From contig JADHVZ010000020.1 in the NCBI GenBank assembly GCA_016783745.1, forward strand, positions 1 to 36,950: DNA of 36,950 nucleotides, in the 5' to 3' direction. The notes below the pieces were generated by a model. The model saw only the letters and a list, made by a program, of their open reading frames with translations. It did no database searches and was not told the DNA's origin. The number at the start of each line of letters is the position of its first letter. Position 1 is the first letter of the stretch. This stretch comes from Candidatus Omnitrophota bacterium. GTDB lineage: Bacteria; Omnitrophota; Gorgyraeia; JAHIPI01. Both the position numbers and the translations under genes were made by a program. This document shows positions 22,606-36,666 of the stretch, one piece after another.

Positions 22606-22634
22606 TTGACTTTCCTCACTTTTTGTGGTATATT
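22606..22634 (+). promoter_or_regulatory. Predicted promoter of nrdJ
   Basis: TTGACT (22606-22611), 17 bp, TATATT (22629-22634). SD AGGAGGG lies close before the ATG at 22688. Confidence 0.6.
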
Positions 22635-22687
22635 TTTTTGTACTTAGTCTTTATTTTTTAATCTATAAATCTTCTAGGAGGGCGGTT

Positions 22688-25600
22688 ATGTCGGAATCGG
22701 ATGTAAAACTGAATATTTCTGAGAATGCCAAAAGAGTTCTCGAGAGAAGGTATTTAAAAAAGGACCTGCAGGGAAAAATAACAGAGACACCGAAAGAGAT
22801 GCTTGAAAGGGTAGCAGGCAATATAGCGCAGGCCGATGCCGCTTATGATAAAAGAGCGGACTTAAAGAAAATAAAAGAGGAATTTTATTCCGTCATATCA
22901 AGGTTTGATTTTTTACCTAACAGCCCTACCTTGATGAATGCCGGCAAGGACCTTCAGCAGTTGAGCGCCTGCTTTGTTTTACCTATTAGAGATTCCATGG
23001 AAGGCATCTTCGACAGCCTTAAATCAGCGGCACTAATTCATAAATGCCTCACTCCTGAAACTTTGCTATCTACGGAAAAAGGATTAAAACGATTAAAGAA
23101 AATAAGGATAGGGGATAAAATTCTAACAGATGAAGGGTATTTTAAGGTAAAAGACCTTTACGAGAACAAGGGGCAGATTGTATATGAAATTTCGACAAAC
23201 AGAGGTTTTATTATTAAAGGAACCTCGGAACATAAGCTTTTAGCCGTAAGCGAGAACGGTGATTTTATATGGCGAGAAATAGGAGAGCTTAACGAAGGTG
23301 ATTGGGTAGTCATGCAACCCCCCGGGCGATTATTGGGGGGGGACGACAGCCTGCCTGCTTTTAAGCCCAGCATGAGACGTCAAGTAAATTCAGGCTGTTT
23401 TAAAGCCCAAAAGGTCAAATTCTTAAGAAGATTGACTCCTGAATTGGCCGAGATGATCGGGGTTTACATAGGCGACGGTTCAAATCATAGAGACGGAATA
23501 AGATTTTCGGTTGGCAAAGATGATGATGAGATGGTCCAAATTATTAATAGATTATCAAAGACCGTCTTTAATAAAAAAGCGAGCGTATCTTCTACAGCAA
23601 ACAGAGGATATGAGGTTGCAATCTTAAGCATCTTAGTTAAAAAATGGTTTGAGTTTTTAGGTATTACCAAGCCTTCCTCAAGAAAAGCCCACATTCCAGA
23701 GATTATTTTTGGAGCAACCGAAGAAATAATATGCGCGTTTTTAAGGGGATTGTTTTCCGCGGATGGTTGCATACGAAAAAGCGGTCATATAACATTGACG
23801 ACTAGCTCCAGAGTCCTTTCGGAAGAATTGCAGTTTCTTATGTTCTATATCGGCGTACCTACACATAGAAGGCATTATAAATCTACGGACAGTTATCAGA
23901 TTTCTATTTGTACGAAAGAGGGATTTATTAATTTCAAACAAAAAATCGGCTTTCTACTTTCCAGAAAAAATGAAAGATTGGCAGGCATAAGTCCGGAGGA
24001 TATCTTTAAAAGGGGAGAGGTCATCCCGAACCAAAGAATTTTAATTAAAGACTGGTATGCAAAACTCGGTGACCGCGAAAAAAGGTATGAGGCGCGGCTA
24101 TCTTTTGATGATATTTTAAATAGATTTTCTGAGCCAAGAGAAATAAGCAGGCAGAGAATCACGTCTGTCTTGGAAAAAAACAAGATATGCCCGCAATTTT
24201 TGGAGACTCTCTTGAATAAAAACTATTTCTTTGTTGGAGTTTCCAAAGTTAACCCATTAGGGGTAATGGATACCTATGATATAACTGTTTCTGGCAGACA
24301 CACATATCTGGCTAATGGATTTATTACTCATAATTCAGGCGGAGGGACGGGATTTTCATTTTCGAGCTTGAGGCCGAAAAACAGCGTAGTAAAGACGACG
24401 GGAGGAGTCGCGAGCGGTCCGGTATCTTTTATGAAAGTATTTGATGCGGCGACTCAGGCTGTGAAGCAGGGGGGTACTCGTCGCGGAGCTAACATGGGTA
24501 TATTAAGGGTAGACCACCCCGACATAATGGAATTCATCACTTGCAAGGAGAACAGTAAAGACATAACAAATTTTAACATCTCCGTGATGATCACCGATGA
24601 GTTCATGAAGAAGGTAGGGGAGGGAGGTACATATTCTCTTATCGATCCTCACAGCAGAAAAAAGGTGGGTGAGCTCAATGCGAAAGAGATCTTTGAAGTC
24701 ATAGTCAAGATGGCATGGAAAAACGGAGAACCGGGAATTATATTTTACGATAGGCTGAATAAGGACAATCCCACTCCTAAGATAGGGTCTATAGAATCCA
24801 CCAATCCTTGCGTCATCGGGGATACCTTTGTGTCGACGGAAAAAGGACTGATGAGGATAAAAGGCCTGGCCGAACAATATAGCAACGGCGGCATAGATAT
24901 CTTTACGGATGATAGAGCCTTAGACATCCTTTACGGCGGCGGAGAATCCGGCAATTTAGCGGTAGAGACAAAATCAGGCCTTTCTTTGAATACGATTTCG
25001 CGGGCTTTTAAAACCGGAATAAAACCGGTGTTGAGGATTACAACGGAATCCGGTTATGAATTGGCCGCCACTCATGACCATAAGGTTATGACGCCTGATG
25101 GCTGGGTTAAGGCTGAAGATCTAAAAGAGGGTGAGGATCGGGTACTTATTCAGTCAAATCCGGGCCAGTTCAATTCTGATGATGAACTTCCTTTTGAGGT
25201 TCAAAATGAATATATAGGAGAGAACGGAAGAGCATACAAGCTTAATCTTCCTAATAAATGGTCAAAAGAATTAGGCCGGATTTTAGGTTGGCTTGTCGGC
25301 GATGGATGGTTGAGGGATGAAGACAAGAATCGTCGGGTAGGTTTTACGTTTAGCCGGAATGATAAGGAGATACTTGATTACCTTAAGCCTATTATCAACA
25401 GTTTCTATGGTTATGATATTAAGGAAGTGCTCCGGGAAAACGGCGTTTACCACCTTTCGTATCATAGCAAATATTTTGTGGAATTCTTTAAGAATTTAGG
25501 TATTAAAGCGTGGAGCTCAGAACATAAAGAAGCGCCCGAGTCGATTTACACTGCACCGAAGGAAGCCGTAATCGGATTTTTACAAGGCCTCTTTACTGCT

Positions 25601-27520
25601 GACGGCACAATCGGCATACAGGATACAAAAGGTGTAGCTTATATTAGATTGACGGCTAAATCTCAAAAACTTTTGAAAGATGTCCAACTATTACTCCTTA
25701 ATTTAGGGATAAGGTCAAGAATATATAACAGGTCAAGGCAAGAAAGGACAGGTTTTGAATATATTTCAAAAGACGGAAAAAAGAGTGTCTATAAACTCGA
25801 CGGTATATGTTACGAATTGTCAATCTCCAGAAATGCAATACTTTTATTTCTGGAGAAAGTAGGTTTCTTAGGCAATTCTCATTCCTCGAAAATAAAAAAA
25901 TTATTGGCAAGAAATTATCATGAAACGTCTTTTGTTGAAAAAATAAAGAGTGTTATACCTTGTGGTGAGCAGGAAGTGTTTGATCTTACCGAACCGGAAA
26001 CTTTGACTTTTCTCAGCAATGGTTTTATTTCCCTCGATTGCGGTGAACAACCACTTTTAGCTTATGAAAGCTGTAATCTGGGCTCAATCAATCTATCTCA
26101 GATGGTCTCGGGCGATAAAGTAGATTGGAATAGGATGGCCAGAACAGTCAAAGTGGCAACGCGTTTCCTGGATAATGTCATAGATATGAATAAGTTTCCT
26201 CTCTCGATAATCCGTGAGAAGACTCTCGAGAACAGGAAGATCGGCCTGGGCGTTATGGGTTTTGCTGATATGCTTATAAAATTGGGGATTCCCTATGATT
26301 CCGATGAGGCGCTCAAGAAGGCTGAGGAAATAATGAAATTTATTCTGGATAAGGCCCGGGAGGCCTCCGAGGCACTGGCCGAAAAGAGAGGCGCATTCCC
26401 CAGCTTTGAAAGAAGCGTATTTTATGAGAGGAAAGACAAGCCGCTGAGGAACGCTACGCTTACTACTATTGCTCCGACGGGAACGCTGAGCATAATAGCC
26501 AATTGCTCAAGCGGCATAGAGCCGATCTTCGCGGTATCATATGTAAGGAATGTGATGGATAACGATGAGCTTGTGGAAGTGCATCCTCTGTTTCTGGAGA
26601 TGGCCAGGGAAAGAGGGTTTTATTCCGAAGAGCTTATGAAAAAAATAGCGAAGGCGGGCAGCGTACAGGATATTGACGAAGTCCCCGCTGACATCAAAAG
26701 GCTTTTCCGCACTTCTCTGGATATTGATCCGGAATATCATATAAAGATGCAAAGCGCTTTTCAACGCTACACCAATAATGCGGTATCAAAGACTATAAAT
26801 TTCCCGAACCAGGCTACCGTGGACGATGTAAGAAAAGCCTATATGCTTGCCTTTGATAAGGGCTGCAAGGGCCTGACCATTTACAGAGATAAAAGCCGTG
26901 AAGAGCAGGTGCTTAATATAGGAAAGGTGAATAAGGAAACCGCGGCCATGGAAGAAAAGGCAAGGGCCGTGACTCTAAAGCCTAAGCCGCGCGGGCCGGT
27001 CACATTCGGCACCACTACGAAAGTAAGCACGGGATGCGGAAATCTATACGTCACTATAAATAACGATGAAGCAAATAAGCCTTTTGAGGTATTCATGCAG
27101 ATGGGTAAGGCAGGCGGATGCGCAATGAGTCAACTGGAGGCTATAGGGAGATTACTTTCCCTTGCGCTTAGAAGCGGCGTTAACTCGGGCTCGATAATAG
27201 ATCAGCTTAAAGGCATACGCTGCCCGTCGCCGAGCTGGGAAAAGGGAGGCGGCAGGATATTCTCTTGCAGTGATGCCATAGCGCGTGTCGTAGAAAGGCG
27301 TATGTCCGAGGCAAAAGAGCTGACAAAGAAGCTTGAAGAGGGCATAAACTATATAGATCCACCGGCTGAATCAAAGGGATCAACCGCAGGCGCTCAAGCC
27401 ACTAAAACTAAGGCCAGGACCGGAAACGTTGTAGGGGTGTGCCCTGATTGCGGAAGTGCGCTAAGACACATCGAAGGATGTCAGGTCTGCAATGCATGCG
27501 GTTTTTCCAAGTGCGGATAA
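22688..27520 (+). CDS. nrdJ: Adenosylcobalamin-dependent (class II) ribonucleotide reductase containing two inteins
   Basis: 1610 residues; the ATG at 22688 has AGGAGGG upstream, whereas a start at 22625 would lie inside the promoter. Removing inteins at residues 120-549 and 708-1117 leaves about 770 residues, a normal class II length. Extein motifs: QLSACFVLP (Cys95, redox pair), SGGGTGFSFSSLRP, ESTNP joined to CGEQPLLAYESCNLGS (the N-x-C-x-E radical site), ATLTTIAPTGTLSI, DKGCKGLTIYR, and a C-terminal CPDCGSALRHIEGCQVCNAC zinc-type cluster. The enzyme reduces ribonucleotides to deoxyribonucleotides with B12 and needs no oxygen, which fits an anaerobe. The only product that can work is the doubly spliced protein. 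A candidate NrdR site lies in front. Confidence 0.95.
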   Translation: MSESDVKLNISENAKRVLERRYLKKDLQGKITETPKEMLERVAGNIAQADAAYDKRADLKKIKEEFYSVISRFDFLPNSPTLMNAGKDLQQLSACFVLPIRDSMEGIFDSLKSAALIHKCLTPETLLSTEKGLKRLKKIRIGDKILTDEGYFKVKDLYENKGQIVYEISTNRGFIIKGTSEHKLLAVSENGDFIWREIGELNEGDWVVMQPPGRLLGGDDSLPAFKPSMRRQVNSGCFKAQKVKFLRRLTPELAEMIGVYIGDGSNHRDGIRFSVGKDDDEMVQIINRLSKTVFNKKASVSSTANRGYEVAILSILVKKWFEFLGITKPSSRKAHIPEIIFGATEEIICAFLRGLFSADGCIRKSGHITLTTSSRVLSEELQFLMFYIGVPTHRRHYKSTDSYQISICTKEGFINFKQKIGFLLSRKNERLAGISPEDIFKRGEVIPNQRILIKDWYAKLGDREKRYEARLSFDDILNRFSEPREISRQRITSVLEKNKICPQFLETLLNKNYFFVGVSKVNPLGVMDTYDITVSGRHTYLANGFITHNSGGGTGFSFSSLRPKNSVVKTTGGVASGPVSFMKVFDAATQAVKQGGTRRGANMGILRVDHPDIMEFITCKENSKDITNFNISVMITDEFMKKVGEGGTYSLIDPHSRKKVGELNAKEIFEVIVKMAWKNGEPGIIFYDRLNKDNPTPKIGSIESTNPCVIGDTFVSTEKGLMRIKGLAEQYSNGGIDIFTDDRALDILYGGGESGNLAVETKSGLSLNTISRAFKTGIKPVLRITTESGYELAATHDHKVMTPDGWVKAEDLKEGEDRVLIQSNPGQFNSDDELPFEVQNEYIGENGRAYKLNLPNKWSKELGRILGWLVGDGWLRDEDKNRRVGFTFSRNDKEILDYLKPIINSFYGYDIKEVLRENGVYHLSYHSKYFVEFFKNLGIKAWSSEHKEAPESIYTAPKEAVIGFLQGLFTADGTIGIQDTKGVAYIRLTAKSQKLLKDVQLLLLNLGIRSRIYNRSRQERTGFEYISKDGKKSVYKLDGICYELSISRNAILLFLEKVGFLGNSHSSKIKKLLARNYHETSFVEKIKSVIPCGEQEVFDLTEPETLTFLSNGFISLDCGEQPLLAYESCNLGSINLSQMVSGDKVDWNRMARTVKVATRFLDNVIDMNKFPLSIIREKTLENRKIGLGVMGFADMLIKLGIPYDSDEALKKAEEIMKFILDKAREASEALAEKRGAFPSFERSVFYERKDKPLRNATLTTIAPTGTLSIIANCSSGIEPIFAVSYVRNVMDNDELVEVHPLFLEMARERGFYSEELMKKIAKAGSVQDIDEVPADIKRLFRTSLDIDPEYHIKMQSAFQRYTNNAVSKTINFPNQATVDDVRKAYMLAFDKGCKGLTIYRDKSREEQVLNIGKVNKETAAMEEKARAVTLKPKPRGPVTFGTTTKVSTGCGNLYVTINNDEANKPFEVFMQMGKAGGCAMSQLEAIGRLLSLALRSGVNSGSIIDQLKGIRCPSPSWEKGGGRIFSCSDAIARVVERRMSEAKELTKKLEEGINYIDPPAESKGSTAGAQATKTKARTGNVVGVCPDCGSALRHIEGCQVCNACGFSKCG
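23045..24334 (+). mobile_element. Intein 1 of the reductase with LAGLIDADG homing endonuclease
   Basis: 430 residues (120-549) inserted in ALIHK/SGGGTG, between the first redox Cys and the Gly-rich nucleotide loop. It begins CLTPETLL (Cys1), block B is GTSEHKL (Thr179, His182), and it ends SGRHTYLANGFITHN with His-Asn before a Ser. The two endonuclease motifs ELAEMIGVYIGDG (about 252-264) and FLRGLFSADG (about 351-360) keep the catalytic acids, so homing activity may survive. A canonical class 1 intein, normal splicing expected. It looks more A+T-rich than the flanking extein. Confidence 0.95.
24809..26038 (+). mobile_element. Intein 2 of the reductase with LAGLIDADG homing endonuclease and C-terminal Asp
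   Basis: 410 residues (708-1117) inserted between NP and the catalytic Cys of the N-x-C-x-E site. It starts CVIGDTFV (Cys1), has block B AATHDHKVMT (Thr795, His798), endonuclease motifs LGRILGWLVGDG (about 862-873) and FLQGLFTADG (about 964-973), and block F EVFDLTEPETLTF. It ends SNGFISLD immediately before CGEQ, so the terminal residue is Asp and the penultimate is Leu, in place of the usual His-Asn. The +1 residue is Cys. Atypical Asp-terminated inteins are known from reductases, so splicing is likely but by a variant chemistry. Confidence 0.93.
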
Positions 27521-36144: not shown

Positions 36145-36666
36145 ATGAAGAAAGCAGTATTGATTTTGGGGATAATTGTTATCTGTGCATATTCTACAGT
36201 CGCAATGGCTGAATCCGTTGACGCAATAGTGCCATTACAACTGACTATTCCGTCACAATTCGGCTTCACGCTGGATAAGTATGCGCATGACTTCGGGACC
36301 GTCAATACAGGCTCTGGCGCGGAGGTAACAATAGGGATTTTCTGCCGTTCGAACCACGGCCTTGTTTGGCACATGGGAGTACAAGCAGACCCGTTCACTA
36401 GCACGACGAACGATATCATGCCAAGTGATCCCGGATTCAAAATGGCGGCATGGTCATGGGCCGAAGATCCGGATGATGCGGCTCAGGGTACGTTCAAGTA
36501 TGAAGGCCCTATTCCCAGCACGATTATGTATGACTTCTATGATTCTACGGAAGCGGAGGGCGGAGACCCGTTTGTTCCTATGACACTTGGGTTATATGTT
36601 AACGTTCCTTCGGCTCAAGCGTCAGGTCTTTATACAACAGACCTGATCATCACAATGCACGAATAA
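36145..36666 (+). CDS. Secreted beta-rich protein, unknown family (173 aa)
   Basis: Signal peptide KKAVLILGIIVICAYSTVAMA with cleavage before ESVDA; AAGGAGGAG precedes the ATG. The mature part is acidic and beta-strand rich: QFGFTLDKYAHDFGTVNTGS, GLVWHMGVQADP, and a C-terminus GLYVNVPSAQASGLYTTDLI ending ITMHE. The last strand pattern is like those of fimbrial/spore-coat-U-like sandwich domains, but I cannot assign a family. Transcribed divergently from the riboswitch gene and followed by a strong terminator, which suits an abundant surface structural protein. Confidence 0.75.
   Translation: MKKAVLILGIIVICAYSTVAMAESVDAIVPLQLTIPSQFGFTLDKYAHDFGTVNTGSGAEVTIGIFCRSNHGLVWHMGVQADPFTSTTNDIMPSDPGFKMAAWSWAEDPDDAAQGTFKYEGPIPSTIMYDFYDSTEAEGGDPFVPMTLGLYVNVPSAQASGLYTTDLIITMHE

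What the first reader, a model, noticed from the sequence alone, without database searches (positions are those of the whole stretch)
24809..26038. Asp-terminated intein ending directly at the catalytic cysteine of ribonucleotide reductase
The intein's last residues are ISLD before CGEQ, so it lacks both the penultimate His and the terminal Asn. The +1 splicing residue is the thiyl-radical Cys of N-x-C-x-E, so no active enzyme can form until it splices. Inteins ending in Asp are rare; as I recall, one from Carboxydothermus hydrogenoformans reductase was shown to splice by a variant route. A missing His-Asn pair would suggest an independent case or a relative.
Basis: partly seen in the sequence, partly recalled or inferred. 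Interest (0 to 1): 0.72.

Follow-up and report, generated by a model that had tools for sequence, protein, structure and literature searches.

The report
Aspartate-ending intein at reductase radical cysteine
A self-removing protein segment interrupts this bacterium's only detected DNA-building-block enzyme exactly at its radical cysteine, and it ends in aspartate instead of the usual His-Asn; the same unusual ending is conserved in at least 22 genomes of bacteria and archaea, so it is a maintained variant and not an error.

Summary
Confirmed. 24809-26038 encodes a 410-aa LAGLIDADG intein in an Omnitrophota class II ribonucleotide reductase (NrdJ). It ends ISLD, directly before CGEQ. Empty-site homologues read ESTNPCGEQ, which fixes the boundary, and the +1 Cys aligns with T. 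maritima NrdJ Cys322, the NxCxE finger-loop cysteine. I collected 66 inteins at this site. They end in Asn (29), Asp (22) or Gln (15). The 22 Asp forms come from Omnitrophota, Bacillota, Heimdallarchaeota-group and DPANN genomes, so an assembly error is excluded. All keep Cys1, Thr B:7, His B:10 and Asp F:4. Both histidines implicated in Asn cyclisation are gone in all 22: F:13 is Leu/Phe/Tyr and the penultimate residue is never His. In the window genome this NrdJ is the only RNR found. dN/dS is about 0.1. Most likely it splices, with Asp410 replacing Asn in step 3, probably through a cyclic anhydride; splicing itself was not tested. What is new is the breadth, the concerted signature and the mosaic ancestry. 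The Asp-F:13 association rests on only 4 supported independent contrasts.

The parts
22688..27520 (+). Class II (B12-dependent) ribonucleotide reductase nrdJ, interrupted by two inteins; 771 aa after removal of both (counted from the GTG at 22685). ATG 22688 assumed as start; the mechanical ORF begins at GTG 22625.
   Evidence: NF006417 1147 bits, PF02867 and PF00317 hits; spliced length
23045..24334 (+). Intein 1, 430 aa, ordinary ending ITHN with Ser +1, between HK and SGGGTGF
24809..26038 (+). Intein 2, 410 aa, Asp-terminated, inserted NP^CGEQ
24803..24808 (+). N-extein Asn-Pro, first half of the NxCxE finger-loop motif
   Evidence: alignment to 1xje; motif PMC9669993
24809..24811 (+). Cys1 (block A), nucleophile of step 1; Cys in all 66 inteins collected (required by the collection pattern)
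25070..25081 (+). Block B Thr88 (B:7) to His91 (B:10), invariant in the 58 aligned alleles
25301..25303 (+). Asp165, first LAGLIDADG acid (VGDG)
25601..25603 (+). Asp265, second LAGLIDADG acid (TADG)
25982..25984 (+). Asp392 (F:4); Asp in all Asp- and Asn-ended alleles of the aligned set
26003..26005 (+). Leu399 at F:13, where Asn/Gln-ended alleles have His; Leu/Phe/Tyr in all 22 Asp-ended alleles
26015..26017 (+). Ser403; Ser/Thr in 21 of 22 Asp-ended alleles, Ala/Val/Cys in most others
26030..26035 (+). Ser408-Leu409 (G:5, G:6); no penultimate His
26036..26038 (+). Asp410 (G:7), the intein's last residue, codon GAT
26039..26047 (+). C-extein CGE: Cys+1 is the reductase radical cysteine (aligns with T. 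maritima NrdJ Cys322)
   Evidence: PMC9669993

Best explanation
Intein 2 is an active class 1 intein with an Asp-type third step. Cys1 forms the thioester, helped by Thr B:7, His B:10 and Asp F:4. The N-extein then moves to Cys+1, which is the radical cysteine of the enzyme. The carboxylate of Asp410 then replaces Asn: it attacks its own backbone carbonyl, forming a cyclic (succinic) anhydride that releases the C-extein. The final S-to-N shift rebuilds NPCGEQ. A carboxylate needs no deprotonation, so His F:13 is no longer needed and is replaced by a hydrophobic residue, and the penultimate His is also lost. Shown: sequence, boundary, conservation, co-occurring changes, no second reductase found. 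Inferred: that it splices, and the anhydride step.
For: Asp at the end of 22 allelic inteins in four phylum-level groups of two domains. Invariant Cys1, Thr B:7, His B:10 and Asp F:4 in the Asp set, with F:13 always Leu/Phe/Tyr and G:6 never His. Published models give His F:13 the role of deprotonating the terminal Asn, and name Asp cyclisation as the step-3 substitute (PMC4031507). dN/dS about 0.1. No other RNR barrel and no NrdD in the window genome; 14 of 17 Asp-intein genomes tested lack a second barrel, so a non-splicing intein should be lethal. In five Bacillota-group genomes both LAGLIDADG acids are lost or not recognisable while the Asp end is kept. AAT to GAT is a single-base change.
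Against: No splicing was observed here. The anhydride route is chemical inference. From memory of the 2004 abstract, the Carboxydothermus intein still cleaved at its C-terminus with Ala in place of Asp, which cyclisation of that residue cannot explain. The Asp/F:13 association is perfect (22/22) but rests on 4 supported independent contrasts (sign test p 0.125), because the intein body is mosaic. The genome is about 93% complete, so a second RNR could be missed.
Confidence: 0.62

Rival explanations
1. It splices, but Asp410 acts as a general base (or only positions water) so that the C-terminal bond is hydrolysed after branch formation; no cyclic intermediate forms.
For: Loss of both step-3 histidines fits any carboxylate-based route; Ser/Thr at 403 and 408 could hold water. 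Recalled: C-terminal cleavage persisted in the Carboxydothermus Asp-to-Ala mutant.
Against: Uncoupled hydrolysis risks cleavage without ligation. The review treats Asp cyclisation as the default substitute while allowing other mechanisms.
Confidence: 0.25
2. The intein is decayed and no longer splices properly; it only cleaves, and the host makes little or no enzyme from this gene.
For: Two canonical step-3 residues and the terminal Asn are missing.
Against: Only RNR found in the genome, dN/dS about 0.1, intact LAGLIDADG acids, and the same ending conserved in 22 genomes.
Confidence: 0.06
3. The Asp codon is an assembly or sequencing error for Asn (GAT for AAT).
For: It is one base away from Asn.
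Against: Asp in 22 independently assembled genomes, with GAT and GAC codons and linked changes at 399, 403 and 408.
Confidence: 0.01
4. It is a direct relative of the Carboxydothermus hydrogenoformans reductase intein, so nothing here is independent of that case.
Against: The Carboxydothermus sequence could not be reached. The length recalled for it (345 aa) matches neither the 372-aa Bacillota nor the 410-aa Omnitrophota forms.
Confidence: 0.5

Closest known systems
Asp-terminated intein of Carboxydothermus hydrogenoformans (Amitai, Dassa and Pietrokovski 2004, J Biol Chem 279:3121, cited in PMC4031507)
   Same: Ends in Asp; reported to splice; reductase host (recalled)
   Different: Sequence, insertion site, F:13 and G:6 states not available here; length recalled as 345 aa against 410 aa
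Class 1 inteins (Cys1, Cys+1, terminal Asn)
   Same: Blocks A, B and F:4 intact; LAGLIDADG domain; fold close to TliVMA/PhoVMA inteins
   Different: Asp at G:7; no His at F:13 or G:6
Gln-terminated inteins (Chilo iridescent virus RNR; P. abyssi Pol II; 15 alleles here at the same reductase site)
   Same: Variant terminal residue in step 3; same insertion site; up to 64% identical to the window intein
   Different: Gln alleles keep His F:13 in 14 of 15 and have Met at F:15
Inteins lacking the penultimate His (A. aeolicus R2, Chen et al. 2000, cited in PMC8772380)
   Same: No His G:6
   Different: That intein is in the class I R2 subunit and is not known to end in Asp

Membership tests
Intein (HINT splicing domain with homing endonuclease) | Splicing blocks A/B/F and an LAGLIDADG domain in one insert | tested here: met
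   PF14890 50.7 bits, PF14528 78.9 bits, TIGR01445 42.5 bits, all over cut-off; model fold matches VMA inteins
Intein (HINT splicing domain with homing endonuclease) | Removal restores the conserved host sequence | tested here: met
   Joined extein reads ESTNPCGEQPLL as in empty-site alleles and aligns through the junction with 1xje
Class 1 intein | Cys/Ser at position 1 and Cys/Ser/Thr at +1 | tested here: met
   Cys1 and Cys+1
Class 1 intein | Thr B:7, His B:10, Asp F:4 | tested here: met
   T88, H91, D392, all conserved
Class 1 intein, standard form | C-terminal Asn preceded by His | tested here: not met
   Leu409-Asp410; the literature admits Gln/Asp variants and about 5% with another G:6 residue
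Class 3 intein | Cys at F:4 | tested here: not met
   Asp392 at F:4
Asp-terminated inteins (Carboxydothermus type) | Terminal Asp | tested here: met
   Asp410, 22 allelic cases
Asp-terminated inteins (Carboxydothermus type) | Common descent or same insertion site as the Carboxydothermus intein | not testable with these tools
   Paper not held; the genome could not be named or located
Any intein | Splicing activity (ligated exteins) | not testable with these tools
   Needs expression; indirect support only

The most novel reading that the evidence does not exclude
Asp-terminated inteins form a distinct catalytic subtype in which a carboxylate does step 3 without either step-3 histidine. At the reductase radical cysteine this subtype has arisen, or been swapped in as a short C-terminal cassette, several times in bacteria and archaea, and many hosts depend on it for their only reductase.
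Probability: 0.4. Interest if true: 0.75.

Novelty: new member of a known kind. Interest (0 to 1): 0.55.

Why it matters
One biochemically reported Asp-terminated intein could be dismissed as an oddity. Twenty-two, with a shared multi-residue signature and mostly in organisms with no other detected reductase, make it a real solution to C-terminal cleavage. Three endings (Asn, Gln, Asp) at one identical extein junction, on bodies up to about 65% identical, give a natural comparison set: the chemistry of step 3 can be tested with the exteins held constant. Histidine-free C-terminal cleavage would also interest protein engineers.

Tried and rejected
Viral contigs: a single-sequence scan found nothing and an alignment scan gave no Asp-ended allele at this site. 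Phages: only a Moorella phage carries an intein here, ending VVHN. Plasmids: one weak unrelated hit. The Amitai 2004 paper is not held, and no held paper gave the Carboxydothermus sequence. Considered and rejected: a junction at the internal PCGEQ (it would cut off blocks F and G); assembly error; pseudogene. A single origin of the Asp allele for the whole intein is rejected by the AU test (p 1e-5); a single origin of only the C-terminal cassette is not excluded. A 45-row tree of residues 355-410 groups all Asp forms, but that is partly circular: with the trait columns removed, 33 columns no longer do.

Full report
WHAT IS THERE. The ORF covering 22625-27520 is a class II, B12-dependent ribonucleotide reductase (NF006417, 1147 bits; PF02867, PF00317, PF12637) with two inteins. 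Intein 1 is 23045-24334 (430 aa, ends ITHN before SGGGTGF). Intein 2 is 24809-26038 (410 aa). It starts CVIGDTFV and ends NGFISLD, directly before CGEQPLL. The same nrdJ as the named Omnitrophica record L033 turns up as a same-class relative (G140) in a search of the window's phylum, so the window is from Omnitrophota.

BOUNDARY AND CYSTEINE. Homologues without this intein read ESTNPCGEQ (L012, L013, L069, L070, L072, L073), so the insert lies between Pro and Cys. The joined extein aligns across the junction with T. maritima NrdJ (1xje, E 1.5e-57), putting the +1 Cys on residue 322. In RNRs the NxCxE finger-loop cysteine carries the catalytic thiyl radical (PMC9669993). Before splicing, this loop is split and the +1 Cys is held in the splice junction, so active enzyme should require splicing (inference).

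IT IS AN INTEIN BY EVERY TEST AVAILABLE. Pfam Intein_splicing 50.7 bits and LAGLIDADG_3 78.9 bits; NCBIfam intein N-terminal domain over cut-off. The intein C-terminal model is not among the hits, as might be expected for a non-standard end. AlphaFold mean pLDDT is 90, with closest solved folds TliVMA and PhoVMA inteins.

THE ASP IS CONSERVED. Searches of relatives, genome contigs, Omnitrophota, the phyla of a Pacearchaeota and a Heimdallarchaeota genome, and a Bacillota phylum gave 66 distinct inteins at this site: 29 Asn, 22 Asp, 15 Gln. Asp ends occur in 8 Omnitrophota (window, L006, L033, L034, L035, L038, L052, L056), 6 Heimdallarchaeota-group (L039, L127-L131), 3 DPANN (L040, L045, L113) and 5 Bacillota-group genomes (L147-L151). 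Codons are GAT 20 times and GAC twice. Pairwise dN/dS is about 0.05-0.16.

A CONCERTED SIGNATURE. Over the 58 readily alignable alleles (22 Asp, 21 Asn, 15 Gln), the positions that best separate Asp forms from the others are all in blocks F and G. Position 399 (F:13; seven residues after Asp F:4, as in Mtu RecA, numbering recalled) is Leu19/Phe2/Tyr1 in Asp forms, against His20/Asn1 in Asn forms and His14/Ser1 in Gln forms. Position 403 is Ser/Thr in 21 of 22. Position 408 is Ser in 20 of 22. Position 409 is never His. Cys1, Thr B:7, His B:10 and, in Asp and Asn forms, Asp F:4 are invariant. The penultimate His alone is not diagnostic, since 10 of 21 Asn forms have Ser there.

WHY THAT MAKES CHEMICAL SENSE. 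[quoted passage not shown] It lists Asp and Gln as residues that can cyclise instead. A terminal carboxylate needs no deprotonation, so losing His F:13 together with Asn is what a carboxylate-driven step 3 predicts. Cyclic anhydride formation is my preferred form; water activation by Asp is the main rival.

FUNCTIONAL DEPENDENCE. In the window genome (93% complete) the RNR barrel family is found once and NrdD not at all. Fourteen of 17 Asp-intein genomes tested have no second barrel; G091, G237 and G802 do. In L147-L150 both LAGLIDADG acids have become Ser or Asn, and in L151 the second is Ser and the first motif is not recognisable, yet the Asp-ended splicing block is kept.

EVOLUTION. The Asp allele is not one clade on the intein body: 7 changes, AU test p 1e-5. 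Segment comparison shows mosaics. The window intein's residues 1-110 are closest to the Gln-ended allele of a same-family genome (L004, 73%), while its last 14 residues are closest to other Asp forms (86%). L038 and L131 carry a Gln-type second endonuclease half with an Asp end. Either short C-terminal cassettes are exchanged (plausible during homing repair), or the same residue set evolved repeatedly. With the trait columns removed, the C-terminal block has too little signal to decide. AAT to GAT is one base, CAA to GAT two, so an Asn ancestor is the simpler source (inference).

LIMITS. No splicing assay. Only 4 supported independent contrasts for Asp against F:13 (all concordant, p 0.125). 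The sample of genomes is not random. The Carboxydothermus intein, the one reported to splice with a terminal Asp, could not be retrieved, so membership in its lineage is untested. Details of its mutants and length are recalled from the abstract.

VERDICT. The intein is a new member of the known but barely sampled Asp-terminated kind. The new points are its breadth across two domains, the linked loss of both step-3 histidines, and the mosaic history.

Noticed in passing
window 23045-24334: A second, ordinary intein in the same gene (ITHN, Ser +1) at the HK^SGGGTG site.
   Followed up: partly
L004:1501-2727 and L005:1495-2724 (minus strand): Gln-ended alleles in same-family genomes lack the penultimate His (VTRQ, VTAQ) and have Asn at F:4; L005 also has Ser at F:13. 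Doubly atypical inteins.
   Followed up: no
L147-L151: Asp-ended 372-aa inteins whose LAGLIDADG acids are Ser/Asn (or unrecognisable in L151), yet the endonuclease region still shows dN/dS near 0.1; why a dead endonuclease is conserved is unexplained.
   Followed up: partly
L046:2525-3370: Moorella phage MTATph1 reductase carries a 282-aa VVHN intein at the same NP^CGE site, a possible vehicle for transfer.
   Followed up: partly
G000 contig C47 about 36290-36412 (L003): Another intein-like ORF in the same genome, ending VHN before SHSAAYAM, which looks like DNA polymerase III alpha.
   Followed up: no
intein residues 262-365 across alleles: The second endonuclease half comes in two types (SW...IFG, mostly with Gln ends; SY...ISR, with Asn/Asp ends), with crossovers in L038 and L131.
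   Followed up: partly
G091 C43, G237 C75, G802 C197: Three Asp-intein genomes hold a second RNR barrel gene, possibly an intein-free reductase.
   Followed up: no
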